64,000 nt of DNA, from contig NZ_LBMG01000025.1 of assembly GCF_001005315.1 (NCBI RefSeq), positions 1 through 64,000 of the forward strand. Reading direction: 5' to 3'. A model generated the notes under the pieces. The model saw only the letters and a list, made by a program, of their open reading frames with translations. It had not been told where the DNA came from and searched no databases. This DNA is from Kordia jejudonensis. Its GTDB lineage: Bacteria > Bacteroidota > Bacteroidia > Flavobacteriales > Flavobacteriaceae. Positions 11,860 through 61,875 of this stretch are shown here, piece after piece (within the stretch, counting starts at the first letter, position 1; the number at the start of each line of letters is the position of its first letter). The position numbers were made by a program, and so were the translations under genes.

Positions 11860-12036
11860 ATGAAAAAAAAGAATTTAAAAAGTTTACAACTTAACAAGAA
11901 ATCAATTTCAGAATTGGGAACTGAAAAGCTTCAAGGTGGCACAAACGCACCACTAGATGTACACGAGACGAATTGCGATTGCGATGATTTTACCTGTTGG
12001 AAAACATGTCATTGGTGCACGCGAGGTTGCTCATGA
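11860..12036 (+). CDS. Cys-rich RiPP (class I lanthipeptide-like) precursor peptide
   Basis: A 58-residue peptide. The leader MKKKNLKSLQLNKKSISEL ends in a GG at 26-27 and is followed by a core with six cysteines (C39, C41, C46, C50, C53, C57). The leader pattern (KK..L..L.L.KK.IS.L...GG) is that of Bacteroidota natural-product and lanthipeptide-type precursors. The core contains HETNC, which recurs in the precursor at 35679. No modification or export genes are adjacent, so maturation would have to occur in trans. A terminator hairpin lies 30 bp downstream. The core ends Gly-Cys-Ser. The mature structure and activity cannot be predicted. Confidence 0.75.
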   Translation: MKKKNLKSLQLNKKSISELGTEKLQGGTNAPLDVHETNCDCDDFTCWKTCHWCTRGCS

Positions 12037-12065
12037 AACTGTGTAGTGAGAACAATAGAAATAAC

Positions 12066-12093
12066 AAAGCGAACTGTAAAAAGTTCGCTTTTT
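12066..12093 (+). terminator. Terminator downstream of the Cys-rich precursor
   Basis: AAGCGAAC (12067-12074) pairs with GTTCGCTT (12083-12090) and is followed by TTTAT. The hairpin lies between the convergent precursor and AbiH genes and touches the AbiH stop codon. Confidence 0.7.
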
Positions 12094-13186
12094 ATATGCT
12101 TTTTTCTAATTGCACTTGCGGTGTTGGTATTGATTTTTCAAAAGGAACAATCTTGGTTCGCATACTCGCTTTGTCGTTAAAATGACGCGATATTTCATAC
12201 ACGGTGTTCGTGTAGCCTTTTATGCCATTGTGATAGAATATTTTAATCGATTTGCAATGGTCGTGTTCAAAAACATGGTTCAATAAAGTACGATCAGAAA
12301 GTCCGCAGGAATGCCCAATAATGTAAATTTCATAACCTTCTACACTTCCATCTAAGAAACGAATTAAATCTTGATAATTCGATGTTTTTAGGTATTGAAA
12401 CGATTTGATATGTTCAAAATAAGCATTGTTGTTTAACTCTTCAATTTCCTGATAACTCTTGTCCATTTCGTCTCCAAAACCAAAAATGATAGGATTTTCA
12501 GCACTTTCCAATTCTCCATGAATATAATTCACTTCATGATCTCTTAAATGATGAATGACTTCAGGTTCTATTAAATAATCTTCTAGTAAAGTTGTGTAAT
12601 TAAAATTTAAGAAAAGTGTTTTTTCAGGATACGCATTGGGTACAGAAAATGCGCTCGTTTCTGGAATGTCCTTTTTTTTAGTTAGAAAAATATTTAGAAA
12701 CTCTTTACTTGGTTTGAAATAGTATGTTTCTTCTACTTCTTTCTTTAAATACGATTCTAAAATTGACTTTAAGGTTTCAAAGTCTTTGTTGAGTTGTGCT
12801 ATTTTATGTGAATTCGGACTTCGATAGCATATTTTTAACAAGCGATAATATTCAGATTCAATATCTACCCAATTGTTTTTATCAAGATTATTTAGTAGAC
12901 CACTTAAAAAATTACTTTTAATATTGTATGTAACAATTTTATTATTAGAATACAAATGTTTTAATAATTCATTAATATTAGTAGCATCATCAATTCCTTT
13001 TCCCCAAGCGTGTTCGCTTTTAGAGTCAAATCTATAAATATATTCCCTTTTGACATATATTAATCCTGACGCATCATGCTTTTTCTTAAAAACATCCTTT
13101 AAATACTGCAACATAAAATCTTCATAACGCGTTGGCAAACCGTGCGCTAAGTCAAATCCGTTTCCAAGAAGTACGAGTCTGTTCAT
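12092..13186 (-). CDS. AbiH-family abortive infection protein
   Basis: A 364-residue cytoplasmic protein beginning MNRLVLLGNGFDLAHGLPT, the N-terminal signature of the AbiH family; the original lactococcal AbiH blocks phage multiplication. Later landmarks are TLFLNFNYTTLLEDYL, NYIHGELESAENPIIFGFGDE and IYIIGHSCGLSDRTLL, all of which fit AbiH. The frame stays open to 13240, but the conserved motif should sit at the very N-terminus, so the ATG at 13184-13186 is preferred. The mechanism of the family is poorly known. It lies between a RiPP precursor and repeat debris, an accessory setting consistent with a mobile defence gene. Confidence 0.85.
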   Translation of the reverse strand: MNRLVLLGNGFDLAHGLPTRYEDFMLQYLKDVFKKKHDASGLIYVKREYIYRFDSKSEHAWGKGIDDATNINELLKHLYSNNKIVTYNIKSNFLSGLLNNLDKNNWVDIESEYYRLLKICYRSPNSHKIAQLNKDFETLKSILESYLKKEVEETYYFKPSKEFLNIFLTKKKDIPETSAFSVPNAYPEKTLFLNFNYTTLLEDYLIEPEVIHHLRDHEVNYIHGELESAENPIIFGFGDEMDKSYQEIEELNNNAYFEHIKSFQYLKTSNYQDLIRFLDGSVEGYEIYIIGHSCGLSDRTLLNHVFEHDHCKSIKIFYHNGIKGYTNTVYEISRHFNDKASMRTKIVPFEKSIPTPQVQLEKSI

Positions 13187-13234
13187 GTAAATGTGTGCTT
13201 TTTTTAACCATAAAAAGTTGTTAGTCAAAAATTT

Positions 13235-13345
13235 CGTCATGAATCAAGTTCAGAATGACGCATTCTAAAACTTTTAATCATTGTTCATTTCGAGCGCAGT
13301 CGAGAACTACTAAACTCTAACTATCAAAGCATTTCGACTGCGCTC
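13235..13345. repeat. Two nested dispersed-repeat fragments
   Basis: CGTCAT (13235-13240) and ATGACG (13255-13260) bracket a fragment whose 13250-13276 part matches the element at 2371-2397 with three mismatches in 27 bases. Next to it, GAGCGCAGTCGA (13292-13303) and TCGACTGCGCTC (13334-13345) form a perfect 12-bp inverted repeat. Both look like degraded copies of small dispersed flavobacterial repeats. Confidence 0.65.
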
Positions 13346-13403
13346 AATGTGACAACTGTTATAATTGTAGTTTTTCAGAATTTTTATCTAAAAATAAATA
13401 CCT

Positions 13404-14795
13404 CTATCCTTTTATCTTCTTCGATGTTACGGTTCCGTATTTGTCAAATAAATATACCAAAGAAGTCATCGTAGCTGCGCCCAATTCCAATTCACGCTTG
13501 TTAACCGCATCAAACGTATCATTGGAAGCATGATGATGATCAAAATAACGTTGCGAATCTGGTCGTAAACCAGCCAATACAATTTGATCGTCTTTTAACG
13601 GACCAATGTCTGCGCCACTTCCGCCTTTTTCAAAATAGTGAATCAAATACGGCTTGAATAATGCTTTCCAGCTTTCCACTTGTGCAAAGTTTTCATCCGA
13701 ACAGTCAAATGAAAATCCTCTCGGTGTAAATCCGCCTGCGTCACTTTCCAACGCAAATACATGCTTTTCGCCTTTCTTTTTGGCTACTTCGGCATATTTT
13801 CGTCCACCACGCAATCCGTTTTCTTCATTCATAAACAAAACAACTCTGATGGTACGTTTTGGTTTATATCCTGTTTCTTTCATCAAACGCAATACTTCCA
13901 TGCTTTGTACTACGCCAGCGCCATCATCGTGCGAACCGTCTCCTAAATCCCACGAATCTAAATGTCCGCCAACAATAATGATTTCATTTGGAAATTCGCT
14001 TCCCGTAATTTCTCCAATAACATTATGTGATTTTACATCGTCAAATTGTTTGCAATGCATTGTAAATGCAAATTTTGTACTTGGATCTTTTTGTAATTGT
14101 TTGCTCAATTGCTCCGCAGCATTGGTACTAATTGCCGCCGCAGGAATTCTGTCTTTTACCGCAACATCTTCATATCCCATGCTTCCTGTATGTGGATAAT
14201 CGTCCATACGCAAATTCATAGAACGTACAATAACACCAACAGCGCCATATTTTAAGGCTTCTTTTGCGCCAGAATAACGTTGATCTACACAACCGCCGTA
14301 CGCTTCAAATGTACTGATCAAGTCCGCTTGCATCGGTCGGTTGTAAAAAACAATTTTCCCTTGAATTTTATCTTTTCCTAACTTTTCTAAATCGTCCAAT
14401 CCTTGTACTTCGATCACGTTTGCTTCAATGCCACCTTCTTTAGTTGCCACAGAACCGCCCAAAGCACAAATAGGAACTTCTACTTTTTCACTATTTATTA
14501 CAATGTATCCTTCTTCCGCGTCGCCACGTTCCCACTTTGGCACCATGACTTCTTGTAACCAAACTTTATCCAAGCCTAATTTTTCAAGTTCTGCTTTTGT
14601 GTATTGTACAGCTTTTGCAGCGTTTTTTGAACCTGACAATCTTCCGCCAATTTCATTAGATAAATGATCGAGCCATACATAGCTTTTTCCATTTACTAAA
14701 GAAGTGGAGTATACACTTTTGAGTTGTTTTTCATCTGCATTTTGTGCAAAACTAATGGCACAAGCTAACAGAAATAACATGGTAAGTTTCTTCAT
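13404..14795 (-). CDS. M28 family zinc peptidase with PA domain
   Basis: A 463-residue secreted aminopeptidase or carboxypeptidase of family M28. It has a signal peptide (cleavage after about AISFAQ, residue 18), a protease-associated insert (about 120-250) and a catalytic domain (about 255-450). The di-zinc site is complete: H278 and D280 in GGHLDSW, D290/D291 in HDDGAG, catalytic E324/E325 in MNEENG, D352 in ESDAGG and H422 in HHHASNDT. It starts 17 bp after the PPK2 stop and is probably co-transcribed with it. The likely role is degradation of extracellular or periplasmic peptides. Confidence 0.92.
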   Translation of the reverse strand: MKKLTMLFLLACAISFAQNADEKQLKSVYSTSLVNGKSYVWLDHLSNEIGGRLSGSKNAAKAVQYTKAELEKLGLDKVWLQEVMVPKWERGDAEEGYIVINSEKVEVPICALGGSVATKEGGIEANVIEVQGLDDLEKLGKDKIQGKIVFYNRPMQADLISTFEAYGGCVDQRYSGAKEALKYGAVGVIVRSMNLRMDDYPHTGSMGYEDVAVKDRIPAAAISTNAAEQLSKQLQKDPSTKFAFTMHCKQFDDVKSHNVIGEITGSEFPNEIIIVGGHLDSWDLGDGSHDDGAGVVQSMEVLRLMKETGYKPKRTIRVVLFMNEENGLRGGRKYAEVAKKKGEKHVFALESDAGGFTPRGFSFDCSDENFAQVESWKALFKPYLIHYFEKGGSGADIGPLKDDQIVLAGLRPDSQRYFDHHHASNDTFDAVNKRELELGAATMTSLVYLFDKYGTVTSKKIKG

Positions 14796-14812
14796 TTTAA
14801 GTAATATTAGGT

Positions 14813-15691
14813 TTATTCAGATTCAAGTTGTTGTTTGTACAATTCAAGATTTGCTTTGATATCATCGTCCAATTCAGGTTCTTCAATGTCTGAATATTCT
14901 TTTAACGTATCATAAATTATTTTTGCTACGATGTAACGCGCCGTTGGCTTGTCGTCCGCAGGAATGGTAAACCAAGGTGCATGTGGCTTGCTGGTTTTGT
15001 TGACTGCATCTTCGTAACATTCTTGGTATTTGTCCCAAAGTTTGCGCTCTTTTAGATCGCCTGGTGAAAATTTCCAGTTTTTTTCTTTGAGTTCTAAACG
15101 ACGTAACAAACGATTTTTTTGTTCCTCCTTGGAGAGATTTAAGAAAAATTTGAAAATAATCGTTCCATTGTCAGCAATGTGCTTTTCAAAGTTGTTGATT
15201 TGCTCAAAACGTTTTGCCCAAAATTCATCATTTATATCATCTACACTTTCGATACCAGGAATATTTTCTCCCATAATATAATAAGGATGTACACGTGTCA
15301 CTAATACATTTTCGTAATGTGTTCTGTTGAAAATAGAAAATTTCCCTCTAGCGGGCAATGCGATATAATGTCTCCACAAATAATCGTGTTTGCGTTCTAA
15401 TTCGGTAGGAACTTTGAAACTATGCACCACAATTCCGCGTGTATTGAAGTCTTTAAAAACTTCACGAATCAAACTATCTTTTCCCGCAGTATCCATTCCT
15501 TGCAAACAAATCAACACCGCATATTTTCCGTGTGCGTACAAGGTATCTTGCAGTTTCCCTAAATCTTCACGAACGTCTTCTAGTTCTTTTTTGATTTCTT
15601 TTTTAGATGCTCCAAGATCAAATTTGGTGCTTGTTTCACTAAGTTTTATAGGTTTTGTGACTTTAAACGTATTTGTGTCAAAATGCTCCAT
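14813..15691 (-). CDS. PPK2 family polyphosphate kinase (polyphosphate:nucleotide phosphotransferase)
   Basis: A 292-residue cytoplasmic enzyme that transfers phosphate between polyphosphate and nucleotides. Walker A is GMDTAGKD (65-72); the lid and Walker B region includes FSIFNRTHYE (118-127) and RYIVAKIIYDTL near the end. The length and the N-terminal KPIKLSET...FDLGASKKE segment fit the single-domain PPK2 subgroup that usually phosphorylates AMP and/or ADP. Substrate preference cannot be read with confidence. It is first in a likely two-gene unit with the M28 peptidase. Confidence 0.88.
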   Translation of the reverse strand: MEHFDTNTFKVTKPIKLSETSTKFDLGASKKEIKKELEDVREDLGKLQDTLYAHGKYAVLICLQGMDTAGKDSLIREVFKDFNTRGIVVHSFKVPTELERKHDYLWRHYIALPARGKFSIFNRTHYENVLVTRVHPYYIMGENIPGIESVDDINDEFWAKRFEQINNFEKHIADNGTIIFKFFLNLSKEEQKNRLLRRLELKEKNWKFSPGDLKERKLWDKYQECYEDAVNKTSKPHAPWFTIPADDKPTARYIVAKIIYDTLKEYSDIEEPELDDDIKANLELYKQQLESE

Positions 15692-15780
15692 GCGTTACTA
15701 TTTTTCTTTGAAGGCTAAATATACGGATTGTCGCTCACTTTTTTTGTAGTTTAGCCGCTTCAAATTATGAGTATTGCATT

Positions 15781-16992
15781 ATGAAGTGTAAAAAGTTATT
15801 TTTTATAGTATGTATGTGTTTGAATTTCATTGGTTTTGCACAAAACGACCAAGATTCGATTCCTGCATTTACTAAAAATGGAATTTCAAAACCAAGTATT
15901 GTTTCTACCAATCCATTTGGAATTTTTATTTCCCGTTTGAACCATAATTTTAAATTGAAAGCTGCGCGACGTACAACCTTGAGTATTAATTTAGAAAGTG
16001 GAAATGTTTGGGGACCGAATGTAAAAACCTTTATTCCTACTGATGAAGCGTTGCGCGAACAAATGCGAGGAATTCCTTGGTTTAGCCGTCAATCGTTTGT
16101 AAACGAAGAACAAATTGATGCCGAAATGTATGAAATTGAAACCGACGGAGTTATTAAAGGTTTGCGTGTTGATTTGACAGTTCCGACCGCAAAGAATCAA
16201 GAATTGGTTGTTGGATTGAGAGCTTTTATGCTAACGAATGGAAAGTTTCCATTTTCAACCTTTACCAATGATTCTTTTATTGAGTTTTTTCATGATAATA
16301 TTGCTGGTGGAAGCGATCCGTTTGACCGAAAAGTGTTTGGTTTGGACAAAGCAAGTATTAAATATACAGATAGAAACGGACGTCGTTTGAATGCTGGAAA
16401 TGGCGATTTTTTAACCGCTGGAATTGAAACGCATTATTATTATTATCCAGAATTTTTAAATGATAAGAAGGTTTTCTTAAATTTTGGAGCGCATTTAGGC
16501 ACAAATCTTTCCAAGTATAATATGTCTATGGATGTTGGATTGTCTGCCGCTGGTGTAAAACAATTTGATATTAATGATCGTAATTTTGTATTGTTTGGTT
16601 TAGGAACGAATGTACTTCGTAAAAATGCTGTTGATTTACAAAACGACAATCTCGATTTTGGAACGAATGATTTTATCGGAAGTTTGGAAACAACTGTTGA
16701 ATATACCTTTTTATCGAAGGGAAAAACGTTCCATTCTTTTGGTTTGAGTTTTTATGTTCAGACAAGTTTACACAAAAAAGCGGAAGATGAGTATAATATT
16801 TATATCCGAGATGATGAAGCGTTTAATTCTTGGGGACATGGAACGCGTCATTTGTATAAGAATAATAATTATTGGACGTTGCTATACACATTTACACGAA
16901 AGGTTTCGACTTCTTTTTATATTCAACAAGATTTTACCGTAAATAACAATCCTGATTTACAAACAGGAATTAGTGTGAAGTTTGGAATTTAG
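15781..16992 (+). CDS. Predicted outer-membrane beta-barrel protein, unknown function
   Basis: A 403-residue protein with a signal peptide ending at GFAQ (about residue 21). The body has many alternating hydrophobic and aromatic strands (for example FLNFGAHLGTNL, NYWTLLYTFTRKVSTSFYIQQDF) and a C-terminal strand ending GISVKFGI, as in outer-membrane barrels. I do not recognise a named family. It stands alone, divergent from the PPK2 gene, with no operon partner to suggest a role. Confidence 0.65.
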   Translation: MKCKKLFFIVCMCLNFIGFAQNDQDSIPAFTKNGISKPSIVSTNPFGIFISRLNHNFKLKAARRTTLSINLESGNVWGPNVKTFIPTDEALREQMRGIPWFSRQSFVNEEQIDAEMYEIETDGVIKGLRVDLTVPTAKNQELVVGLRAFMLTNGKFPFSTFTNDSFIEFFHDNIAGGSDPFDRKVFGLDKASIKYTDRNGRRLNAGNGDFLTAGIETHYYYYPEFLNDKKVFLNFGAHLGTNLSKYNMSMDVGLSAAGVKQFDINDRNFVLFGLGTNVLRKNAVDLQNDNLDFGTNDFIGSLETTVEYTFLSKGKTFHSFGLSFYVQTSLHKKAEDEYNIYIRDDEAFNSWGHGTRHLYKNNNYWTLLYTFTRKVSTSFYIQQDFTVNNNPDLQTGISVKFGI

Positions 16993-17072
16993 ACGATTTG
17001 ATTGCTTCGCTTTTAGATGTTGGACCGCTTTGCCATTAGATCTGTTTTTCTAATGATAAATTTCAATTCTTC

Positions 17073-17112
17073 AATCTTTTAATCTTTTAATCTTTCAATC
17101 TTTCAATCTTTT
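17073..17112. repeat. Five copies of an 8-bp AATCTTTY repeat
   Basis: Tandem octamers (AATCTTTT, AATCTTTT, AATCTTTC, AATCTTTC, AATCTTTT) about 80 bp past the stop of the outer-membrane protein gene. Confidence 0.9.
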
Positions 17113-17114
17113 TA

Positions 17115-17140
17115 TAAAAAAAACCAACTCATAAAGTTGG
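17115..17140 (-). terminator. Terminator after the sigma-54 regulator gene
   Basis: CCAACT (17124-17129) pairs with AGTTGG (17135-17140). On the minus strand the hairpin is followed by about eight T, just beyond the regulator stop codon at 17151. Confidence 0.75.
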
Positions 17141-17150
17141 CTCTTGTGTT

Positions 17151-18314
17151 TTATTTCGATGCAAATAACTTGACATCTTCTTCTGTGACTTCTTTTCCAC
17201 CGAGAATGATGAGTCGTTCTACAACGTTTCGAAGTTCTCTAATGTTTCCTGTCCAATCGTATTCTTGTAACAATTTGATTGCTTTGTCGGAAAATTTCTT
17301 GGCTGCAGTTCCTTGTTCTGTTGAAATTTTCTTAGCAAAGTAGTTTATCAATAACGGAATGTCTTCTCTCCTATCATTTAACGCTGGAACTTTGATTAAG
17401 ATAACTGCTAATCTGTGGTATAAATCTTCACGAAATTTTCCGTCTGCAATTTCCTTTTTTAAGTCTTTATTGGTTGCTGCAACGACACGCACATTCACTT
17501 TGATGTCTTTGTCGCTTCCTACGCGCTGTACTTTACTTTCTTGTAATGCTCGTAATACTTTTGCTTGCGCTGAAAGACTCATATCTCCAATTTCATCTAA
17601 GAAAATTGTTCCACCATTTGCTGCTTCAAACTTTCCTGCTCTGTCTTTGTTTGCGCTTGTAAATGCACCTTTTACATGTCCAAAAAGTTCACTTTCTATC
17701 AACTCGCTTGGAATTGCTGCACAATTGACTTCGATCATCGGACCTTTACTGCGGTCACTTTTTTGGTGTAACCAATGGGAAACTAATTCTTTCCCAGTTC
17801 CGTTTGGACCTGTAATTAATACACGAGCATCCGTTGGCGCAACTTTTTCAATCATGTCTTTGATTTGCTGAATTGCATCCGAATCGCCAATCATTTCATA
17901 GTTTTTGCTGACTTTCTTTTTGAGTCGTTTGTTTTCAACAACCAATTCTTTTTTGTCGAGCGCATTTCGTACCGTATTTAGTAATCTGTTTAAATCGGGC
18001 GGTTTTGAAATATAGTCAAATGCACCTAAACGCATCGTATTTACAGCCGTATCCAAGTCGCCATGACCAGAAATCATCACAAAAGGTGTTTCGGGTTTTA
18101 TCTTTTTAGCAGCTTCTAAAACTTCAACTCCATCCATTTTTGGCATTTTAATGTCACATAATACCAAATCATAATCTTCTTTTTTGACCAATTCTATACC
18201 GACCAATCCGTCTTCTGCTTCTGAAACTTCATACGTATCATTTTCTTCCGACAAGATTTTTACCAATACTCTTCGGATTGCCGATTCATCTTCTATTACT
18301 AATATTTTAGGCAT
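17151..18314 (-). CDS. Sigma-54 activator-type response regulator lacking the DNA-binding domain
   Basis: A 387-residue NtrC-class protein. The receiver domain (1-120) has D54 as phospho-acceptor and K104. The AAA+ domain (about 140-375) has Walker A GPNGTGKE (169-176), Walker B GGTIFLDEIGD (234-244) and arginine-finger candidates near 295-301. The sigma-54-contacting loop reads GAFTSA (216-221), not the canonical GAFTGA. The protein ends at EEDVKLFASK with no C-terminal Fis-type helix-turn-helix, about 60-80 residues shorter than classic NtrC. It could act on sigma-54 polymerase from solution, as proposed for other family members without a DNA-binding domain. It starts 2 bp after the mscS-like stop, so it is last in a four-gene block. 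Confidence 0.9.
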   Translation of the reverse strand: MPKILVIEDESAIRRVLVKILSEENDTYEVSEAEDGLVGIELVKKEDYDLVLCDIKMPKMDGVEVLEAAKKIKPETPFVMISGHGDLDTAVNTMRLGAFDYISKPPDLNRLLNTVRNALDKKELVVENKRLKKKVSKNYEMIGDSDAIQQIKDMIEKVAPTDARVLITGPNGTGKELVSHWLHQKSDRSKGPMIEVNCAAIPSELIESELFGHVKGAFTSANKDRAGKFEAANGGTIFLDEIGDMSLSAQAKVLRALQESKVQRVGSDKDIKVNVRVVAATNKDLKKEIADGKFREDLYHRLAVILIKVPALNDRREDIPLLINYFAKKISTEQGTAAKKFSDKAIKLLQEYDWTGNIRELRNVVERLIILGGKEVTEEDVKLFASK

Positions 18315-18316
18315 AT

Positions 18317-35678: not shown

Positions 35679-35918
35679 ATGAAAAAAAAGAATTTAAGTA
35701 AATTAAGCTTAAAAAAGAGTACTATTTCTGAGTTGAATAATTCTAATAAAATTATTGGGGGAAAAGAAAAATCAATACATGAGACAAATTGTAACCTTTG
35801 TCCTCCTACTGGTTCTAATGCATGTCCTACAGAAGGTTGTCCAATTATTGATCCAAATCCAGGAGGTTCTGGTCTTCTCTGTACATATAGTCAAAATATT
35901 ACTTGTATTTTCTGTTAA
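35679..35918 (+). CDS. Cys-rich RiPP (class I lanthipeptide-like) precursor peptide
   Basis: A 79-residue peptide. The leader MKKKNLSKLSLKKSTISEL ends in a GG at 27-28. The 51-residue core has seven cysteines (in HETNC, NLC, NAC, EGC, LLC, ITC, IFC) and a Gly/Pro-rich middle. HETNC is shared with the precursor at 11860, about 24 kb away. No tailoring enzyme is adjacent. A strong hairpin terminator follows 6 bp after the stop. Confidence 0.78.
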   Translation: MKKKNLSKLSLKKSTISELNNSNKIIGGKEKSIHETNCNLCPPTGSNACPTEGCPIIDPNPGGSGLLCTYSQNITCIFC

Positions 35919-45216: not shown

Positions 45217-45426
45217 ATGAAAAAACAATTGAAAACTTTAGGATTAAAAAAGCACACCATTTCTTCGTTAGAGGAAACATTATTGAAAGGTGGCGCGCCA
45301 ACAACACATAGTTTAATTACGATGCACGCAGGTTGCGTAAGTCAGCAAGGCTGTAATCCAGTACCGCAAGATCCAAGACCACAAACTGGAACTTCTGTCT
45401 GCATTAAATGTGGAACTTGGTTGTAA
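45217..45426 (+). CDS. RiPP (class I lanthipeptide-like) precursor, first of three in tandem
   Basis: A 69-residue peptide. The leader MKKQLKTLGLKKHTISSLEE ends in GG at 25-26, and the core has four Cys (GC, GC, VC, KC) plus several Ser/Thr and a Pro-rich middle. It has its own promoter and terminator. The leader is of the same type as in seven other loci here, while the core is unrelated. No modifying enzyme is in the neighbourhood. Confidence 0.75.
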   Translation: MKKQLKTLGLKKHTISSLEETLLKGGAPTTHSLITMHAGCVSQQGCNPVPQDPRPQTGTSVCIKCGTWL

Positions 45427-45573: not shown

Positions 45574-45806
45574 ATGAAAAAACAAAAAATCTCTTTGCAA
45601 TTGCGCAAGCAGAAAATTTCTTCATTAGCTTCAAACCAAACACAAGGAGGAGTGTGTATACGTATACACGCGTAATAGAAAGATGCAGAATTACTGAAAT
45701 TACACAATGCGGACAAATAACCTGTAATACAGTGATTATTACAACAACAGACCTCACTAACGACATTTCTAAAGTATGCTTTCAGAGCAGACTTATGTTG
45801 TGCTAA
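45574..45806 (+). pseudogene. Frameshifted RiPP precursor, second of three in tandem
   Basis: From the ATG at 45574 the frame encodes a standard leader (MKKQKISLQLRKQKISSLAS, GG at 25-26) but stops at 45675 after seven core residues. In another frame, from about 45655 to the stop at 45804-45806, the sequence continues as a plausible core with five Cys and VIITTTDLT, resembling the intact core at 61356-61601 (VIITTVKILT). A single indel near the perfect palindrome GTGTATACGTATACAC (45654-45669) would join the two. It may be a decayed copy, a truncated peptide or a sequencing error. Confidence 0.6.
45654..45669. repeat. Perfect 16-bp palindrome at the frameshift point
   Basis: GTGTATACGTATACAC equals its own reverse complement. 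It sits directly after the leader GG codons of the broken precursor and is the likely site of the indel. Confidence 0.9.
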
Positions 45807-45928: not shown

Positions 45929-46132
45929 ATGAAAAAACAAAAAATCTCATTACAATTAGGGAAACAGAAAATTTCGTTAGTTGCTCAAAAAACAGCTTCC
46001 GGTGGAAGAAACTATCAAACAAACAATCCGTATCAATGTGTTACATTACAAACGTATTGTGGAATTGAATGTCAGACAACACTATTGACAAATCAAACAG
46101 GATGCTGCGAACTTTCAAGATTGGTTTGTTAG
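45929..46132 (+). CDS. RiPP (class I lanthipeptide-like) precursor, third of three in tandem
   Basis: A 67-residue peptide. The leader MKKQKISLQLGKQKIS is nearly identical to that of the broken gene at 45574 and ends in GG at 25-26. The core has six Cys, including an adjacent pair in GCCEL, and several Thr. The two genes therefore arose by duplication, with only the leader retained. A strong hairpin follows the stop codon. Confidence 0.75.
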   Translation: MKKQKISLQLGKQKISLVAQKTASGGRNYQTNNPYQCVTLQTYCGIECQTTLLTNQTGCCELSRLVC

Positions 46133-54125: not shown

Positions 54126-54174
54126 TAACTTTAGATAGAAGTTTGCTACTCATAGCATATTAAACAGATTTATT

Positions 54175-54588
54175 ATGAAAAATATAACACAATTCGCGTT
54201 CTTATTATTTTTGGGTGTTACGTTACAGATTTCTGCACAAGAAGTCACACAAGAAACACCTATTGTTTTCAATGATATTGAAGATTTCGAACTGCCGACA
54301 TTTTCAAAATTATCTGCTGATATTGCAAGCGAATACGTATCAGTTGTAGAGTCATTACCAAATTTGACGACTATTGGACCTTTTGTTGATAAAGAATTAA
54401 GACGATCTTTTATTGATGAAAATAGTACTGTATATACGGTTCGAAACTTTACAGAGCCAAATTCAATACTTCCGAATATCAGTCCAAAACGGTTTGAATT
54501 ACGAAATAGTTTAAACACTATTATGTTTACTGGTTTTGATATTACACAGTTACATTGTAATAATGCTTTTAGAGCAACAGGAAATTAA
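54175..54588 (+). CDS. Secreted hypothetical protein
   Basis: A 137-residue protein with a clear signal peptide (ends ISAQ, about residue 22). The mature part is short and mixed, with no recognised motif; one Cys near the C-terminus. It lies 49 bp after the amidohydrolase pair and has a strong terminator. Function unknown. Confidence 0.65.
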   Translation: MKNITQFAFLLFLGVTLQISAQEVTQETPIVFNDIEDFELPTFSKLSADIASEYVSVVESLPNLTTIGPFVDKELRRSFIDENSTVYTVRNFTEPNSILPNISPKRFELRNSLNTIMFTGFDITQLHCNNAFRATGN

Positions 54589-54610
54589 AAACGTAAATAT
54601 TTACATACAA

Positions 54611-54641
54611 AAAAATCCTCTTCGTGTTGAAGAGGATTTTT
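54611..54641. terminator. Bidirectional terminator after the hypothetical protein
   Basis: Perfect 13-bp stem AAAAATCCTCTTC / GAAGAGGATTTTT with a GTGTT loop, between convergent genes. Confidence 0.9.
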
Positions 54642-54670
54642 CTTTTCCATATAATTCTTACTCATATCTC

Positions 54671-55474
54671 TTATCCTTTTGGAACAATGACAGCTCCTTC
54701 TGGACGTGAATACATTTTAGTTTCCATTGGTTTATTGGTCAAGACTACATTTATAAATTCTACTGAATTGCGCACTTCGGTTACTTTGTTATCTTCACTT
54801 TTATACCATGTTAATGTTTTAGGTAATACGACTCCATTAACTTTTTGCCAATCGCTGTAACGGATGTAGCTAATTTTTGTACTTGGCGCACCGTTAAAAT
54901 ACGTTACTGTATATCCCAACCATTCCATTTGATAGTTTTCGGGATTGTAATAAATGAAGTAATTGTCTTCTGGCGAGTCTCCTACTCCATCTCCATATGA
55001 AATTTTATATCCAGGATATTGTACATCTTCAAACGATAAACTTTCAACCTCATCATATGTAATTCCATCATCGCCTAATACAAAAGGCATCGCATAGAAA
55101 TAAAAGTATAAATTATGATAAAAACGGGCATTTCCTTTGAAGGCAGTTGTATCTTTTTGAGCTAACCAAACATCTTTTCCATCATAACCAATGGTGAAGT
55201 TTTCTCCTTCCAATCGAGTTTTACGTGAATGCAAATCGGTAATATGCTTTTCCGTTTGCTTCGGTTTTACCATTTCGTAAATTAAGGTTTGTGCAGCATT
55301 CCAGTTGTCGATTCCGCCATGAGCATCAAACACTTTTTGTAGCTTTTCAGGATATTTTTTAGTTTCTTTTTTTACTTCTTCTTGCGGTATATCTGCTGTT
55401 TTCGCATCTTTTTTTTCGCTTTTACAAGCAACCATTAAGAACAATCCTAATAGGATTAGCGTAATTTTTTTCAT
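54671..55474 (-). CDS. DUF6503 family lipoprotein
   Basis: A 267-residue lipoprotein (lipobox LMVAC, C17). After a Lys/Glu-rich linker, the region FDAHGGIDNWNAAQTLIYEM and the later SDWQKVNGVVLPKTLTWY recall outer-membrane lipoprotein-sorting-like beta folds grouped as DUF6503. The ligand or partner is unknown. It is a single gene. Confidence 0.72.
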   Translation of the reverse strand: MKKITLILLGLFLMVACKSEKKDAKTADIPQEEVKKETKKYPEKLQKVFDAHGGIDNWNAAQTLIYEMVKPKQTEKHITDLHSRKTRLEGENFTIGYDGKDVWLAQKDTTAFKGNARFYHNLYFYFYAMPFVLGDDGITYDEVESLSFEDVQYPGYKISYGDGVGDSPEDNYFIYYNPENYQMEWLGYTVTYFNGAPSTKISYIRYSDWQKVNGVVLPKTLTWYKSEDNKVTEVRNSVEFINVVLTNKPMETKMYSRPEGAVIVPKG

Positions 55475-55540
55475 GAATTAGTTTGTTTTAGTTGTATTTC
55501 TGTCGAACAGAACGCTTTAAAATTACAAAGTATTCAAAAT

Positions 55541-55582
55541 AAAAAATCCAATAACAGAATGATGTCGGTTATTGGATTTTTT
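55541..55582 (-). terminator. Terminator of the T9SS-secreted protein gene
   Basis: 15-bp stem AAAAAATCCAATAAC (55541-55555) / GTTATTGGATTTTTT (55568-55582), just beyond the stop codon at 55601. Confidence 0.88.
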
Positions 55583-55600
55583 TAGTTTGCAGGTTAGCGT

Positions 55601-57736
55601 TTACTCTACAATAAACTGTTTCGTAACAACTGTATTTTCTGTTGATTTTATGCGTAATACATAGAAACCTGATGCAAATTCACTAACATCCACTGTGATC
55701 GTGTCACTTTGTGAAGTCATTTTTTGTGCATGTACCAAACGTCCTTCAACACTATATATTTCTATATGTTGAATACGTACGCTTGCATTGGTTTCAATAG
55801 TAAATTTGTCTTTTACAGGATTTGGATACATGCGTATATTATTGGTTGTAAACTCCGTTACACTGAGGAAAACCGTATTGTCTAAATAATCAGGAATGTT
55901 ATTATTGTTGGTATCGTCATCTTCAGGATTGTTGTTTCCGTTGTAATCTTCATCAACAGTCAATGTTCCATCGCCGTCATCATCATTGTCTCTGTGATTC
56001 GGAATTTGATCGTTATCAGTATCTAAGAAACCATTTTCTGGCAAACCTGTTGCAGTATTAACTAGTTCTAAATTCGTCAACACATAATCGCCGTCATCAT
56101 CTTCATCAATAAAATCAGGAATTCCGTCACCGTCGGTATCATCGTTTCCTAAATTTCCATCTTGATTTACATCTTCATCTAGCGTAGCTACACCATCTAA
56201 ATCATAATCTTCCGCACATGATATTCCTGCAAGTGTTACCGTTTTTATCGTCACTTCGTTGGTTGTCGTATTTATAATACTAGCATATATTTTTTGCGCA
56301 TTCGTGATATTGGTATATAATTGAGGCAATGCATTTGTATTGTTAATTGCATCATTTTCAGAAGCGAAATACGATACGGTCCCAGTGACACCATCTAAAA
56401 GGTCAGGATTGATACTTTGCAAATCGAACTCCACAAATCCGTCTAAATCTGAATCACACAACACAGAAAATATATTTTCATAGTCGTTTGTCGGTCTAAA
56501 ACGATGTCCTTCATCAAAAGCATCCCACATTCCAGTGTTTCTTCCTACGGGAGCATATCCTTCTGTTGCCGTGATATTTTGAATACCTAATATTCCAAAG
56601 CCACCATTCCAATCAATACAAGAAATCTTCTGTGCTATTTGCACATCTATAATATTAAAAGTTTCATATAAAATAATTTGTGAGGTAGAATGATCATCGC
56701 AAGAGCCTCCAAATTGATTGATATCGTCAAAGAAAACAACCATTTTTCGAAAAGGCGCTTCTCCTATCACTCCATAACCAAGTGCTCCTGATTCCGTATT
56801 CAGAAGATCGTGGTATACTCCAAAAATTGAATTTTCATATAAACTAGCATCTGGGATAAAATCAGTGCTATTGATCGCCCAAGCACAATATCCATTAGCA
56901 TTTGTAAGATCAAAGGAAATTAATCCATTCGTTCCTATAGTAAATTGATTGTATGTATATTCAAAAAAGTCAAAATCAAAAGGTAAGTTGATTACATCTG
57001 TAAAAACATCGTCCAAGTTTCCTGTATTCGTTGCATTTATAGTATACAAATTAAATGGGATGGCTTCAACTTCATAAGAATCTACAGGTGGAGGATTGTT
57101 GCATGCAGCTGTTGAAGTAAATAATTCTAGTGTTGTGGTTTCATAGCAACCTGTTATAGGATTATTGCCAACTCTTGCGGCTCTTACGTAAAGTATTTGT
57201 GCAAACGGCGATATATTTCCATAGACAAGATTTACAGGCGAATTTCCTGTATCTGCATCTGCTTGCGTTTCATGAAAAGTAACAATTCTGTTGGTGTATG
57301 GACCACCTGTTATTTCATCTATTTTGGTAGCCAAATAAAACACTCCAAAGCCATCTACATTATCATCACATCCCATTAAAGGCGTTGGCTGATTGGCTGG
57401 CGTATTGATTGCGTAAATTATAAAATCTAACTGTGTTATTGTGCTATTCACAGTATTTTCAAGTCGTACATATATTGTATCAATTTGAGAACTTGAACAA
57501 AAGTTTGATGTATTTGCAATGGCATTTGTACCATTGTTTGCATTAGTGAAGCTTTCGTGAAATGTGACAACATGCTCCGTTGGATCTAATCCTGCCAGAA
57601 TTTCTGGGAGTTTTGATGTTAAATCAACACAAACTGATCCGTCATTGTCGTCATCGCAAAGAACAATATCTGTTAGTTGGTATGCAAGAGAAGTATGAGC
57701 AATTAAAAGGAAGGTACATAGTAAAAATTTCTTCAT
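55601..57736 (-). CDS. Secreted protein with type IX secretion C-terminal domain
   Basis: A 711-residue protein: a signal peptide (1-18), two repeated beta modules with D-[DN]-[ND]-x-DG and FHE...A motifs (about 25-215), a middle domain (about 225-415), a further beta module, then Asp-rich calcium-binding thrombospondin-3-like repeats (about 510-625; DGDGIPDFIDEDDDGD, DNDDDGDG). A C-terminal T9SS type A sorting domain ends it (about 635-711; NIRMYPNPVKDKFTIE, GFYVLRIKS). It would be exported by the type IX system and attached to or released from the cell surface. Adhesive or binding function is likely but unproved. Confidence 0.9.
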   Translation of the reverse strand: MKKFLLCTFLLIAHTSLAYQLTDIVLCDDDNDGSVCVDLTSKLPEILAGLDPTEHVVTFHESFTNANNGTNAIANTSNFCSSSQIDTIYVRLENTVNSTITQLDFIIYAINTPANQPTPLMGCDDNVDGFGVFYLATKIDEITGGPYTNRIVTFHETQADADTGNSPVNLVYGNISPFAQILYVRAARVGNNPITGCYETTTLELFTSTAACNNPPPVDSYEVEAIPFNLYTINATNTGNLDDVFTDVINLPFDFDFFEYTYNQFTIGTNGLISFDLTNANGYCAWAINSTDFIPDASLYENSIFGVYHDLLNTESGALGYGVIGEAPFRKMVVFFDDINQFGGSCDDHSTSQIILYETFNIIDVQIAQKISCIDWNGGFGILGIQNITATEGYAPVGRNTGMWDAFDEGHRFRPTNDYENIFSVLCDSDLDGFVEFDLQSINPDLLDGVTGTVSYFASENDAINNTNALPQLYTNITNAQKIYASIINTTTNEVTIKTVTLAGISCAEDYDLDGVATLDEDVNQDGNLGNDDTDGDGIPDFIDEDDDGDYVLTNLELVNTATGLPENGFLDTDNDQIPNHRDNDDDGDGTLTVDEDYNGNNNPEDDDTNNNNIPDYLDNTVFLSVTEFTTNNIRMYPNPVKDKFTIETNASVRIQHIEIYSVEGRLVHAQKMTSQSDTITVDVSEFASGFYVLRIKSTENTVVTKQFIVE

Positions 57737-57862
57737 AGTTTTCGGTTTTGATTGTGTAAGTTACTAATTACAGATGTAAAGATTGTCAAATAGTTGCGTC
57801 AAAATTGAATAAAAATTACAAACCGCTTTAAAAAACCGTCATTTTGTATCATATTGCTTTAC

Positions 57863-57870
57863 TATATTTG
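57863..57870 (+). promoter_or_regulatory. -7 box TATATTTG, implying a near-leaderless transcript
   Basis: An exact TAnnTTTG box with TTTTG 16 bp upstream (57842-57846). Transcription would begin at about 57875, at or next to the ATG of the methyltransferase gene. Confidence 0.55.
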
Positions 57871-57874
57871 CAAC

Positions 57875-58681
57875 ATGTACAAACAGATTTCCAGCACGCA
57901 AAATGCTACCGTAAAACATGTTCTTCAACTGCAAGAAAAATCAAGAATTCGCAAAAAAGAAGGAAAATGCATTTTAGAAGGTTTTCGCGAGTTAACGCTT
58001 GCGCTAGATGGAAATTACATCATAAACACCTTATTATTTTATCCTGAAATTTGTTCACACGAACGCGTGCAAGAGTTGTTAAAAAACACTACAAACGCGC
58101 CTGAATGTATAGAAATTTCAAAAGAAGTCTACCAAAAAATAGCCTATCGCGAAAGTACAGAAGGTGTTTTGGCAATTATGCAAACCAAAGCACATTCGTT
58201 AAAAAACATCACGTTTCACAACCAAAATCCCTTAATTTTAGTAGCGGAAGCTCCTGAAAAACCTGGCAATATTGGTGCATTGCTTCGTACAGCAGATGCC
58301 GCCAATGTAGATGCTGTTTTTATCGCCAATCCGAAAACCGATTTGTACAACCCTAATATTGTACGATCAAGTGTAGGATGCGTTTTTACTACACAAGTTG
58401 CTATGGGAAGTACAACAGAAATCATCTGTTTCTTGCAAGAAAACCAAATCGGCATTTATTGTGCGGCGTTGACTGCTTCTGAAAATTATCACACACAAAA
58501 TTTCAAAAAAGCAACAGCCATTGTTGTTGGTACAGAAGCCACAGGATTGCGTGATGAATGGTTGCAAAATGCTACCCAAAATATCATCATTCCGATGCAA
58601 GGAAAAATAGATTCCATGAATGTTTCTGTAGCAGCCGCTGTTTTAATCTTTGAAGCCAAACGACAAAGAGATTTTAAATAA
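57875..58681 (+). CDS. TrmH/SpoU family RNA 2'-O-methyltransferase
   Basis: A 268-residue SPOUT methyltransferase. The N-terminal substrate-binding domain contains KSRIRKKEGKCILEGFREL. The trefoil-knot SAM domain has EAPEKPGNIGALLRTADA (motif 1), AIVVGTEATGLRDEW (motif 2) and IPMQGKIDSMNVSVAAAVLIFE (motif 3). The substrate (rRNA or tRNA) is not determinable. The start at 57875 is chosen over an ATG at 57854 because the -7 promoter box lies between them. Confidence 0.92.
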   Translation: MYKQISSTQNATVKHVLQLQEKSRIRKKEGKCILEGFRELTLALDGNYIINTLLFYPEICSHERVQELLKNTTNAPECIEISKEVYQKIAYRESTEGVLAIMQTKAHSLKNITFHNQNPLILVAEAPEKPGNIGALLRTADAANVDAVFIANPKTDLYNPNIVRSSVGCVFTTQVAMGSTTEIICFLQENQIGIYCAALTASENYHTQNFKKATAIVVGTEATGLRDEWLQNATQNIIIPMQGKIDSMNVSVAAAVLIFEAKRQRDFK

Positions 58682-58683
58682 TA

Positions 58684-58869
58684 CTATTGCGGACAACTAA
58701 ATAAAAGCAAACATCTGCCGCCTCCATTTGCAAATGGTACACAAACCCAACAATCTGGCGTTCCGCAATCTGAAGTTTGCGAACAAGGACCAAATCCACC
58801 TCCTGTAATTCCTCGTTGCTCGTTTTTACTTAAAATTTGAATTTCTGAAATGTTTAAAATCGTTTTCAT
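58684..58869 (-). CDS. Double-glycine leader bacteriocin-like peptide
   Basis: A 61-residue peptide. The leader KTILNISEIQILSKNEQRGITGG has the hydrophobic spacing and terminal GG(G) of bacteriocin-type leaders cleaved by C39 peptidase transporters. It differs from the KK...IS-L leaders of the other peptides here. The core has six Cys (GPC, SDC, PDC, WVC, GRC, FSC) among Gly and Pro. It ends only 2 bp beyond the convergent methyltransferase stop, with no terminator seen. No transporter is in the window. Confidence 0.7.
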   Translation of the reverse strand: MKTILNISEIQILSKNEQRGITGGGFGPCSQTSDCGTPDCWVCVPFANGGGRCLLLFSCPQ

Positions 58870-59039
58870 GATGTATAATTTAAAGGTTCAATTATAATAT
58901 AACAAATTCAAGCGTATTCACTGTAAAACAAACACATACGATTACTACGGGAATACATTACTATCGTAAGTTTCACTTATTTTTTTAAATTCATTCGACA
59001 TACTTGTTTCTTCCATTTCTTTAGCTTAATTTTAATTCT

Positions 59040-61253
59040 ATGGCAGAAATTGATATTGAAAAAGAAAATGCAGCGATAGCAAGGCAGTACAAAGAACTGT
59101 TGCGAATTAGCTATCAAATCCTTTCCGATGACGATAAAAAAATCATCCGAAAAGCTTTTGATGTAGCTGTTGATGCGCACAAAACTCAGCGAAGAAAAAG
59201 TGGCGAAGCATACATTTTTCATCCGATTGCTGTTGCCAAAATTGTAGCTTCTGAAATTGGACTAGACGCGACGTCTATTGTTGCAGCACTACTTCATGAT
59301 GTCGTTGAAGATACCGAATATACGTTGGAAGATATTGAGCGTATGTTTGGCATTACGGTTGCTAAAATTGTAGATGGCTTGACCAAAATTTCACATCTTA
59401 AGAAAGACAAAGATGTGTCGATGCAAGCGGAAAATTTCCGTAAAATGCTGCTAACTATTCATGATGATGTGCGCGTAATCATCATAAAAATTGCCGATCG
59501 TTTGCACAATATGCAAACCATGGGTTCCATGCCTGCGCACAAACAAGTCAAAATTGCTTCTGAAACACTATACATTTATGCGCCGTTGGCACATCGTATT
59601 GGACTGTATAATATTAAAACAGAACTGGAAGATTTAGGCTTAAAATACACAGAACCAGAAGTTTTTAATGATATTCAAAATAAAATTGAAGAAAGCAAAG
59701 AAGAACAACAAGTATATATTGACAACTTTGCTGCCATTATAAAAAATTCGTTAGACAAAGAAGATTTTAAATATGATATCAAAGGCCGTTTTAAATCTAT
59801 ATTTTCTATTCGTAGAAAAATGGTCAAACAAGGCGTTACATTTGATGAAGTGTATGATAAGTTTGCCATCAGAATCATTTATGAAACGGCGATCCCTGAA
59901 AACGAAAAATTTATCGCTTGGAAAATATATTCCATCGTAACTGACCACTTTAGACCAAATCCGGTACGATTGCGCGATTGGATTTCCTCTCCAAAATCTA
60001 CAGGTTACGAAGCTTTGCACATTACCGTTATGGGACCAAAAGGTCGTTGGGTTGAAGTGCAAATTCGATCGCATCGTATGCATGAAATTGCAGAAAAAGG
60101 CTATGCGGCACATTTTAAATACAAGCAAGGAGAACAAAAAGAGCAAGGTTTAGAACCGTGGTTGAATAAACTACAAGAAGCACTCGAAAATCAAGAAGCC
60201 AATGCGGTAGATTTTGTTGAGCAATTCAAATTGAATTTGTATGCGAAAGAAATATTCGTATTTACACCAACGGGCGATTTACGGTCGTTGCCAAAAGGAG
60301 CCACTCCACTCGATTTTGCATTTAGCATTCATACACAAGTAGGATATCATACACGTGGCGCCAAAGTAAACGGAAAATTAGTACCGCTGAGTCACGAACT
60401 AAAAAGCGGCGATCAGGTAGAAATTATTACGTCTGAGAAATCGAAACCAAATGCAAACTGGTTGGATTATGCCACAACTTCCCGCGCACGTTCTCGGATA
60501 AAATCTTCATTACGCGAGGAAAAGAAAAGTATTGCCGAAGATGGAAAAGAAATTTTACGCCGAAAACTAAAGCAGTTAAAAATCACACTTGATGAAAAAT
60601 CAATCAATGAAATGGTCAATCATTTCAAATTGAAAACAAGTTTAGATCTTTTCTATCGTGTAGGAATTGGCACCATTGACAATCAAAAATTAAAAGAATT
60701 TGCATCACAACGAAGCAATAGTATCTTTAAATTCTTTAAAAATAAAATTCGTAGAGCGCCAAGCATTCCTACGGAAGAAATCAATCAACCAGAAGTTTCC
60801 AATCGCTACGATTTAATTGTTTTTGGGAAAGAAGAAGAAAAGCTCAATTACAAACTAGCCAACTGTTGCAACCCAATTCCTGGCGATGCTGTTTTTGGAT
60901 TTGTAACGGTGAATGAAGGTATAAAAGTGCATAAAAAAGATTGTCCAAATGCTGTGAGTTTACAAGCAAACTATGCATACCGAATTATGACAGCAAAATG
61001 GATTGATTCTTCTCAGGAGGAATTTACCGCATTGCTCGAACTTACAGGAATTGATAATATGGGACTCGTAAATGATGTTACTAAAGTCATTTCCAATAAT
61101 ATGCACGTTAATATTAGAAACATCAGTTTTGAAACCAATGACGGCATATTTACAGGACGCATTACGGTAATTGTAAAAAACAACAATATTTTAAAACGCT
61201 TGATTACCAATCTTACAAAAATCAATGGAATTGAAAAAGTAACGCGTGCTTAA
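59040..61253 (+). CDS. Bifunctional (p)ppGpp synthetase/hydrolase RelA/SpoT
   Basis: A 737-residue stringent-response enzyme. The HD hydrolase domain (about 45-190; H61, H86-D87 in LLHDVVEDT) looks active. The synthetase domain (about 225-370) has RFKSIFSI, SSPKSTGYEALH and KGYAAHFKYK, and is followed by the TGS domain (about 390-450; FVFTPTGDLRSLPKGATPLDFAFSIHT), a Cys-containing ZFD/CC region (LANCCNPIPGD) and a C-terminal ACT/RRM domain (about 660-735). It makes and degrades (p)ppGpp. Long Rel architecture, complete. Confidence 0.96.
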   Translation: MAEIDIEKENAAIARQYKELLRISYQILSDDDKKIIRKAFDVAVDAHKTQRRKSGEAYIFHPIAVAKIVASEIGLDATSIVAALLHDVVEDTEYTLEDIERMFGITVAKIVDGLTKISHLKKDKDVSMQAENFRKMLLTIHDDVRVIIIKIADRLHNMQTMGSMPAHKQVKIASETLYIYAPLAHRIGLYNIKTELEDLGLKYTEPEVFNDIQNKIEESKEEQQVYIDNFAAIIKNSLDKEDFKYDIKGRFKSIFSIRRKMVKQGVTFDEVYDKFAIRIIYETAIPENEKFIAWKIYSIVTDHFRPNPVRLRDWISSPKSTGYEALHITVMGPKGRWVEVQIRSHRMHEIAEKGYAAHFKYKQGEQKEQGLEPWLNKLQEALENQEANAVDFVEQFKLNLYAKEIFVFTPTGDLRSLPKGATPLDFAFSIHTQVGYHTRGAKVNGKLVPLSHELKSGDQVEIITSEKSKPNANWLDYATTSRARSRIKSSLREEKKSIAEDGKEILRRKLKQLKITLDEKSINEMVNHFKLKTSLDLFYRVGIGTIDNQKLKEFASQRSNSIFKFFKNKIRRAPSIPTEEINQPEVSNRYDLIVFGKEEEKLNYKLANCCNPIPGDAVFGFVTVNEGIKVHKKDCPNAVSLQANYAYRIMTAKWIDSSQEEFTALLELTGIDNMGLVNDVTKVISNNMHVNIRNISFETNDGIFTGRITVIVKNNNILKRLITNLTKINGIEKVTRA

Positions 61254-61275
61254 GATAAAATTTTAAAGTATCCAC

Positions 61276-61327
61276 AAAAAAAGAAAGCTGCCTGTACGAT
61301 ATCATTAAAAATATCTAGGCAGCTTTC
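61276..61327 (-). terminator. Terminator of the Thr-rich RiPP pair
   Basis: GAAAGCTGCCT (61283-61293) pairs with AGGCAGCTTTC (61317-61327). On the minus strand a T-run follows, so it ends the two leftward precursor genes and insulates rel. Confidence 0.75.
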
Positions 61328-61355
61328 GAGTTACAATAACTAGTAGTAACTTAAA

Positions 61356-61601
61356 TTATTCTGTAGTAGTGGCAGGTACAGGCGTCGATGTTGTAACACC
61401 AGTCATCGTACATTCTGTAGCATCTGTCGTTCTACAAATACGCGGATCTGTAACGTATTCTGTAAGAATCTTAACCGTTGTAATAATAACATATGTAGTA
61501 GTTCCGACAGAATCCGTACCACCTTGAATGTGTTGTTCTTGTAAATTGGAAATGACTTGTTTTCTTAATTTAAGATTGTTGCTAAAGTCTCTTTTTTTCA
61601 T
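61356..61601 (-). CDS. Thr-rich RiPP (class I lanthipeptide-like) precursor
   Basis: An 81-residue peptide. The leader MKKRDFSNNLKLRKQVISNL ends in GG at 27-28. The 53-residue core holds about 19 Thr but only two Cys (PRIC, TEC). That is an unusual balance: if modified, dehydration of Thr would dominate over ring formation. It lies 22 bp after the sister gene at 61624, likely one transcript. Motifs shared with the sister are D-x-R-I-C and VTT..P. Confidence 0.75.
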   Translation of the reverse strand: MKKRDFSNNLKLRKQVISNLQEQHIQGGTDSVGTTTYVIITTVKILTEYVTDPRICRTTDATECTMTGVTTSTPVPATTTE

Positions 61602-61623
61602 GATCTATTGGTTTTTTAAAGGT

Positions 61624-61875
61624 TTAATTTGAACAAGCTTCCGTATGACAAGCGTCCATACATGTTGGCGGAATAGTAGTAACTCTAGTGGTATCTATAG
61701 GACAAACATCTTCTGTATCGCCGCCTGTACAAATACGTTTATCTGTCCATTTAATGGTTGTAATTTGAATAGGATCAGACACTGCATCGGTTCCACCAAA
61801 AAGGGTGCGTTGCTGTAAATTGGAAATTACTTTCTTCCCTAAATTAAGTCTATGAGTGAAGTCTTTTTTTTTCAT
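61624..61875 (-). CDS. RiPP (class I lanthipeptide-like) precursor, sister of 61356
   Basis: An 83-residue peptide, with leader MKKKDFTHRLNLGKKVISNL, GG at 27-28, and a core with five Cys (RIC, DVC, PTC, DAC, EAC) and many Thr. Leader and first core part (GGTDAV) align with the downstream gene, so the pair is a tandem duplication. No lanthionine synthetase or exporter adjoins. Confidence 0.75.
   Translation of the reverse strand: MKKKDFTHRLNLGKKVISNLQQRTLFGGTDAVSDPIQITTIKWTDKRICTGGDTEDVCPIDTTRVTTIPPTCMDACHTEACSN

What the first reader, a model, noticed from the sequence alone, without database searches (positions are those of the whole stretch)
11860..61875. Eight orphan RiPP-type precursor genes dispersed over 50 kb without any maturation genes
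Seen: eight short genes (11860, 35679, 45217, 45574, 45929, 58684, 61356, 61624). Seven share a leader of the form MKK...L.L.KK.IS.L ending in GG about residue 25-28, with hypervariable Cys- or Thr-rich cores; 58684 has a different double-glycine leader. Known: Bacteroidota lanthipeptide-like and GG-type natural-product precursors have such leaders. Inference: a scattered family matured and exported in trans by enzymes encoded outside this window, comparable to a variable peptide repertoire. Housekeeping genes flank each locus.
Basis: partly seen in the sequence, partly recalled or inferred. Interest (0 to 1): 0.75.

Follow-up and report, generated by a model that had tools for sequence, protein, structure and literature searches.

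The report
Scattered lanthipeptide precursors sharing one synthetase
This marine bacterium (genus Kordia) carries well over a hundred scattered small genes for cysteine-rich peptides that share one recognition tag, and its genome holds a single dehydratase-cyclase-exporter locus whose own precursors bear the same tag, so one pathway may make a very large variable peptide repertoire.

Summary
Confirmed in the main and enlarged. Seven of the eight ORFs carry the leader type of Bacteroidota class I lanthipeptide precursors (six match NCBIfam NF038153); one of the seven, 45574, has a frameshifted core. 58684 is a different, more conserved six-Cys peptide. A leader profile built from precursors near LanB in other genera picks exactly these seven from 238 window ORFs. 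Orthologous slots show purifying selection, stronger on leader than core. The missing enzymes lie elsewhere: one split LanB, LanC and a C39 peptidase-exporter on contig C143, with two precursors of the same leader type. Two profiles together give 197 leader loci in 118 clusters on 53 contigs, two loci on the LanB contig. All 11 genomes of the genus have exactly one LanB and at least 108 leader matches. The layout resembles prochlorosins (83 precursors the highest in the passages read), but with class I enzymes. Kordia as RiPP-rich is in print; my searches showed no account of one LanB with dispersed precursors. Modification in trans is inferred, not shown; the role is unknown.

The parts
11860..12036 (+). 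L1a-type lanthipeptide precursor, 58 aa, Cys-rich core
   Evidence: NF038153 E 0.001, 19.2 bits, below cut-off 22; E 6e-9
35679..35918 (+). L1a-type precursor, 79 aa; ortholog in the same slot in K. algicida, the one relative where that slot could be tested
   Evidence: (24.4 bits, over cut-off)
45217..45426 (+). L1a-type precursor, 69 aa, core starting APTT; relative in the same slot in 8 of 8 Kordia genomes
   Evidence: (E 0.12)
45574..45675 (+). L1a leader with frameshifted core (33 aa ORF)
   Evidence: (E 0.0039)
45929..46132 (+). L1a-type precursor, 67 aa; weakest of the seven
   Evidence: (E 0.009); no NF038153 match at E<=1
61356..61601 (-). L1a-type precursor, 81 aa, Thr-rich core with 2 Cys
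   Evidence: (22.7 bits, over cut-off)
61624..61875 (-). L1a-type precursor, 83 aa
   Evidence: (E 0.00043)
58684..58869 (-). different double-glycine peptide, 61 aa, six Cys, core more conserved than leader; not L1a
9759..11477 (+). TPR / AraC-HTH regulator next to precursor 11860 (possible partner, suggestive only)

Best explanation
The seven L1a ORFs are class I lanthipeptide precursors (one of them broken) of a genome-wide family of roughly 150-200 in this Kordia. Each encodes a nearly Cys-free, Lys-rich leader ending in GG and a variable Cys/Ser/Thr-rich core. The shared LxLxKx5L leader is recognised by the single LanB encoded on contig C143; LanB dehydrates Ser/Thr with glutamyl-tRNA, LanC closes thioether rings with the Cys residues, and the C39 peptidase-ABC transporter with its HlyD partner cuts after GG and exports the product. 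Shown by sequence: leader likeness, enzyme set and copy number, dispersal, selection. Inferred: recognition, ring formation and export of these particular orphans.
For: A leader profile from LanB-near precursors of other genera finds exactly the seven. One LanB N-part, LanB C-part, LanC and C39-ABC plus HlyD lie in an 11 kb locus with two precursors whose leaders match NF038153 (19.4 and 17.8 bits, below its cut-off); LanC has the W-C-Y-G and CHG motifs and the exporter a QMDCGPTC stretch (their reading as active-site motifs is recalled). 11 of 11 genomes of the genus have exactly one LanB and 108 to 150 leader matches each, 150 being the cap. Leader over cut-off and LanB co-occur in 11 of 12 of 249 family genomes. 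Of 113 GG-bearing cores, 113 have Cys and 112 have Cys plus Ser/Thr; Cys was 12.6% of 75 cores against 0.71% of large window ORFs. Leader dN/dS 0.14-0.24, core 0.22-0.39 in four slot families. Print: this leader motif with GG and C39 is described for Bacteroidetes class I precursors (PMC7268733, passages), and Bacteroidota LanB/LanC dehydrate and cyclise precursors in E. coli when given a Bacteroidota tRNA-Glu/GluRS pair (PMC9993889, passages).
Against: No expression or mass data. Other candidate enzymes exist: a LanC beside a nucleotidyltransferase-like gene among L1a precursors (C160), a kinase/HopA1/LanC set (C2), two weaker LanC-like genes, and three SPASM genes; some precursors may be theirs. 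One of 249 genomes (G207) has the leader over cut-off without LanB, and 8 of 21 LanB genomes show no leader match at E<=0.05. Counts rest on capped candidate lists; at least two of the weakest NF038153 matches look spurious (C135:4063 with a stop inside, C185:94522 starting mid-model). Synonymous differences are near saturation (pS 0.5-0.7 except in the two-sequence family) and pairs are not independent, so its dN/dS values are rough.
Confidence: 0.75

Rival explanations
1. The orphans share the leader only for export: the C39 transporter cuts and secretes them as unmodified or disulfide-linked double-glycine bacteriocins, and only the precursors in the LanB locus are lanthipeptides.
For: A C39 transporter with HlyD is present; Cys-rich cores could form disulfides; no modification data exist.
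Against: The leader over cut-off tracks LanB across the family (11 of 12) and resembles LanB-near leaders over its length, not only at the GG; 110 of 113 cores carry at least as many Ser/Thr as Cys.
Confidence: 0.12
2. Different subsets are matured by different enzymes (LanC plus nucleotidyltransferase-like gene on C160, the kinase/HopA1/LanC set on C2, SPASM genes), and LanB serves only a part. This overlaps with the best explanation.
For: Those loci exist, and C160 holds L1a precursors around its LanC. LanC with a nucleotidyltransferase around precursors is reported for Kordia (PMC11118758, passage).
Against: The three C160 leaders in the alignment do not stand apart by eye; the SPASM gene on C163 has two small ORFs of another leader type directly beside it.
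Confidence: 0.3
3. The ORFs are decaying remnants without function.
For: 45574 is frameshifted; presence varies between species in some slots.
Against: Leader dN/dS 0.14-0.24 and core 0.22-0.39 across four slot families (rough values).
Confidence: 0.03

Closest known systems
Prochlorosins / synechococsins (ProcM, SyncM; class II)
   Same: Many precursors scattered over one genome, conserved leader, hypervariable core, one substrate-tolerant synthetase (PMC10783134, passages; PMC9872173, abstract).
   Different: Class II LanM and Nif11 leader there; class I LanB plus LanC and L1a leader here. The highest precursor numbers in the passages read are 83 and 79 per strain, against 150 of 150 scored candidates for one profile and 197 in the union of two here. 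Modification of many substrates by one enzyme is reported there, only inferred here.
Bacteroidota class I lanthipeptides with LxLxKx5L leader (NF038153 lant_leader_L1a; Chryseobacterium and Runella clusters)
   Same: LanB/LanC chemistry and, as a group, the same leader motif, GG end and nearby C39 gene. I did not compare the Chryseobacterium or Runella leaders themselves.
   Different: The two clusters described encode their precursor beside LanB and LanC; here two precursors of this leader type sit in the LanB locus and the others are dispersed.
Kordia RiPP repertoire in the TrRiPP survey (PMC11118758)
   Same: Names Kordia as an example of RiPP richness and gives up to 176 precursors per Bacteroidota genome (section 7 read).
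   Different: Section 7 annotates enzymes within 10 genes of a precursor and does not describe one LanB serving dispersed precursors. Its supplement could not be read here.

Membership tests
Class I lanthipeptide precursor, L1a leader (NF038153) | Leader matches the curated model | tested here: met
   six of the seven match at E<=1, two over cut-off, 45929 not at all; all seven match the LanB-near profile
Class I lanthipeptide precursor, L1a leader (NF038153) | Core with Cys and Ser/Thr | tested here: met
   112 of 113 GG-bearing cores, nine of 122 proteins left out for lack of a GG in range; 45574 is truncated
Class I lanthipeptide precursor, L1a leader (NF038153) | LanB and LanC in the genome | tested here: met
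Class I lanthipeptide precursor, L1a leader (NF038153) | LanB and LanC next to the precursor, as in described clusters | tested here: not met
   No LanB, LanC, C39 or SPASM match lies in the window; this is the point of the finding
Class I lanthipeptide precursor, L1a leader (NF038153) | Lanthionine in the product | not testable with these tools
   Needs mass spectrometry
Prochlorosin family | LanM (class II) synthetase and Nif11 leader | tested here: not met
   The locus holds LanB and LanC and the leader is L1a. It may work like prochlorosins; it is not one. LanM itself was not searched genome-wide
58684 as L1a precursor | L1a leader | tested here: not met
   no match

The most novel reading that the evidence does not exclude
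Kordia encodes a class I counterpart of the prochlorosin system at about twice its size: one LanB-LanC-C39 route serves some 150-200 scattered variable peptides, and TPR/AraC-HTH regulators beside a part of the precursor sites sense them or their targets, so that the repertoire is a signalling or recognition code rather than a set of antibiotics.
Probability: 0.2. Interest if true: 0.85.

Novelty: new variant of a known kind. Interest (0 to 1): 0.6.

Why it matters
If one class I dehydratase-cyclase set accepts this many unlike cores, it is a natural library enzyme for thioether peptides in a class for which I saw no such breadth described in the passages read, and it gives a second, independent case for asking why a marine bacterium keeps scores of variable peptides. 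Mining that looks only near the synthetase would miss most of such a repertoire.

Tried and rejected
Shared promoter motif upstream of 78 precursors: none stood out; the start context AT[C/T] just before ATG (A at -3 in 62 of 78 against 46 of 122 control genes) and A at -13 to -11 were the clearest differences. Fold of 58684 from four orthologs: mean pLDDT 67.8, pTM 0.46; I judged it too weak and ran no fold search. Orthologs of 11860: the K. algicida stretch fetched for it held no anchor, so that slot is untested. SPASM genes as maturases of the L1a set: three in the genome; C144 has no L1a match, C163 has its own small ORFs, C145 has L1a loci about 5-7 kb away and stays open.

TPR/AraC-HTH association. 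First test: circular, since I chose its four seeds for lying beside precursors; 8 of 9 matches adjacent against 53 of 142 large ORFs in all; without the seeds 4 of 5. In the relatives' stretches 2 matches were found and 0 of 2 were adjacent, against the idea. Second test: 20 precursor sites taken in E-value order, skipping stretches already fetched, repeats within a cluster, and four further sites that I passed over (C161:488, C200:168, C152:143212, C147:464); 4 of 97 large ORFs matched, each within 427 bases of a precursor, against 1 weak match of 110 in 20 control stretches that I placed by hand away from known loci. Suggestive only.

Selection in the data. The 17 training leaders were picked by hand from a motif-filtered list; left out were all Kordia sequences, the tandem MKKIKLN type of L069, L073 and L075, and two chance-looking ORFs; L072 and L078 gave no motif ORF. 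One search left out the broken 45574 and two further leader-bearing ORFs of slot A (K. aestuariivivens, K. zhangzhouensis), and used an inner start for one gene; family membership was assigned by eye. One search scored at most 30 candidates per genome; at most 150. The paper listing showed 40 of 1,099.

Full report
What was checked. All eight ORFs are present. Seven share one leader; 58684 does not. NCBIfam names the leader lant_leader_L1a, class I lanthipeptide: six of the eight ORFs match at E<=1 and two exceed the curated cut-off. Pfam gives no match over a cut-off. Flanking genes: adenine deaminase and an M49 peptidase at 35679, prolyl isomerase and an M20 peptidase around 45-46 kb, SpoU methylase and RelA/SpoT at 58684, RelA/SpoT and Fur at 61 kb, but a TPR/AraC-HTH regulator and AbiH at 11860.

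Chance. From LanB loci of Lacinutrix, Leptobacterium and Aquimarina I took 17 leaders of precursors lying within 9 kb of LanB and built a profile without any Kordia sequence. Against 238 window ORFs of 30-170 residues it returns exactly the seven at E 6e-9 to 0.009; the next is E 3.2. Over 1015 ORFs of the window and 20 stretches, 81 real and 0 shuffled ORFs reach E<=0.1; at E<=1 it is 84 and 2. The training leaders had passed a motif filter of mine and were hand-picked, so the test is independent in genus, not wholly in choice.

Genome. The window is in a 5.36 Mb draft whose LanB is 97% identical to one locus labelled uncultured Kordia and 87-92% to seven more loci labelled Kordia. NF038153 gives 128 matches at E<=1 with 150 of 220 candidates scored; 3 of 14 control genomes have a match at that level, none over cut-off, and 0 of 14 at E<=0.05. 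A profile of 37 own leaders matches 150 of 150 scored candidates at E<=3e-4, of 317 candidates in all. The union is 197 loci on 53 contigs, in 118 clusters at a gap of 1500 bases, 74 of them single genes; contig ends may split some clusters and a few of the weakest matches are probably spurious. Two lie on the LanB contig. From fetched stretches I read 122 distinct precursor proteins, 75 in the window and the stretches and 47 in those; the 20 control stretches held none. 113 have a GG in range, and their cores fall into 70 groups, 59 of one member, the largest of 25.

Enzymes. One LanB N-domain in the genome, with its C-part, LanC, C39-ABC and HlyD, a TPR/AraC-HTH gene and precursors. Two of these precursors match NF038153 below its cut-off, a third small ORF there does not. 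Two further, weak C39 matches lie elsewhere. Other LanC-like genes: C2 with a kinase-like and a HopA1-type protein, C160 beside a nucleotidyltransferase-like gene, and two weaker ones on C156 and C146. No LanB, LanC, C39 or SPASM match lies in the window. YcaO, ATP-grasp and LanM were not searched.

Relatives. The 11 genomes that the tool assigns to the window's genus each have one LanB and 108 to 150 own-profile leader matches at E<=0.01, 150 being the cap; with NF038153 at E<=0.05 the numbers are 37 to 80. In 249 family genomes, two of them of this genus, 12 have the leader over cut-off and 21 have LanB, one copy each; 11 overlap, G207 being the exception. At E<=0.05 the overlap is 13 of 23; of the other ten, seven have a match inside an open frame of 200 residues or more, which suggests chance. 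Eight LanB genomes show no leader match.

Slots. From about 42 to 61 kb, gene order is kept in eight genomes labelled Kordia, with some gaps. Precursors of the 45217 type occur in 8 of 8, of the 45574/45929 type in 7 of 8, of the 61 kb pair in 6 of 8 within 1500 bases, 58684 in 3 of 8; 35679 in the one genome where its slot could be tested. In four L1a slot families leaders are more constrained (dN/dS 0.14-0.24) than cores (0.22-0.39). 58684 is the reverse: core 0.15, leader 0.24, six Cys kept in four sequences. Synonymous differences are near saturation, so the values are rough.

Mechanism. The anatomy fits leader recognition by LanB, dehydration, LanC cyclisation and C39 cleavage with export, in trans. 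Leader sharing, enzyme presence and selection are shown; the reaction on these orphans is inferred. A regulator link is suggestive only: strong TPR/AraC-HTH matches near 4 of 20 precursor sites and none strong in 20 control stretches, but 0 of 2 such matches adjacent to a precursor in the relatives' stretches.

Known and new. The leader type and Bacteroidota LanB/LanC chemistry are published (passages). Kordia as an example of RiPP richness, and up to 176 precursors in a Bacteroidota genome, are published (one section read); an antiSMASH count for K. antarctica lists lanthipeptide among nine gene clusters (PMC7477175, passages), and a Flavobacteriaceae survey puts Kordia among the genera with most gene clusters (PMC10734526, passages). 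Scattered precursors under one enzyme are known for prochlorosins, 83 the highest number in the passages read. I saw no account of a class I version with one LanB and dispersed precursors in my searches, which cover only openly licensed papers and in part capped listings.

Noticed in passing
window 58684-58869 (-): Six-Cys double-glycine peptide with a core more conserved than its leader in four Kordia sequences; no NCBIfam match at E<=1 and no Pfam match over a cut-off.
   Followed up: partly
L043 2594-7522: Kinase-like (APH), HopA1-type protein and LanC in a row behind a 478-residue ORF of repeated Cys/Thr-rich units without Pfam or NCBIfam match; looks like a class V-like lanthipeptide set with a multi-core substrate (class name recalled).
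   Followed up: partly
L042 5246-7466: LanC beside a nucleotidyltransferase-like gene (below cut-off) among L1a precursors; a similar pairing is mentioned for Kordia in PMC11118758.
   Followed up: partly
L113 835-2409: SPASM-domain protein with two similar small ORFs (MKKQKSLDALQKS leader), a different peptide system.
   Followed up: no
L115, L118, L119, L127; window 9759-11477; L040 11992-13704: TPR/AraC-HTH regulators beside precursor genes.
   Followed up: partly
window 12092-13240 (-): AbiH-family protein next to precursor 11860.
   Followed up: no
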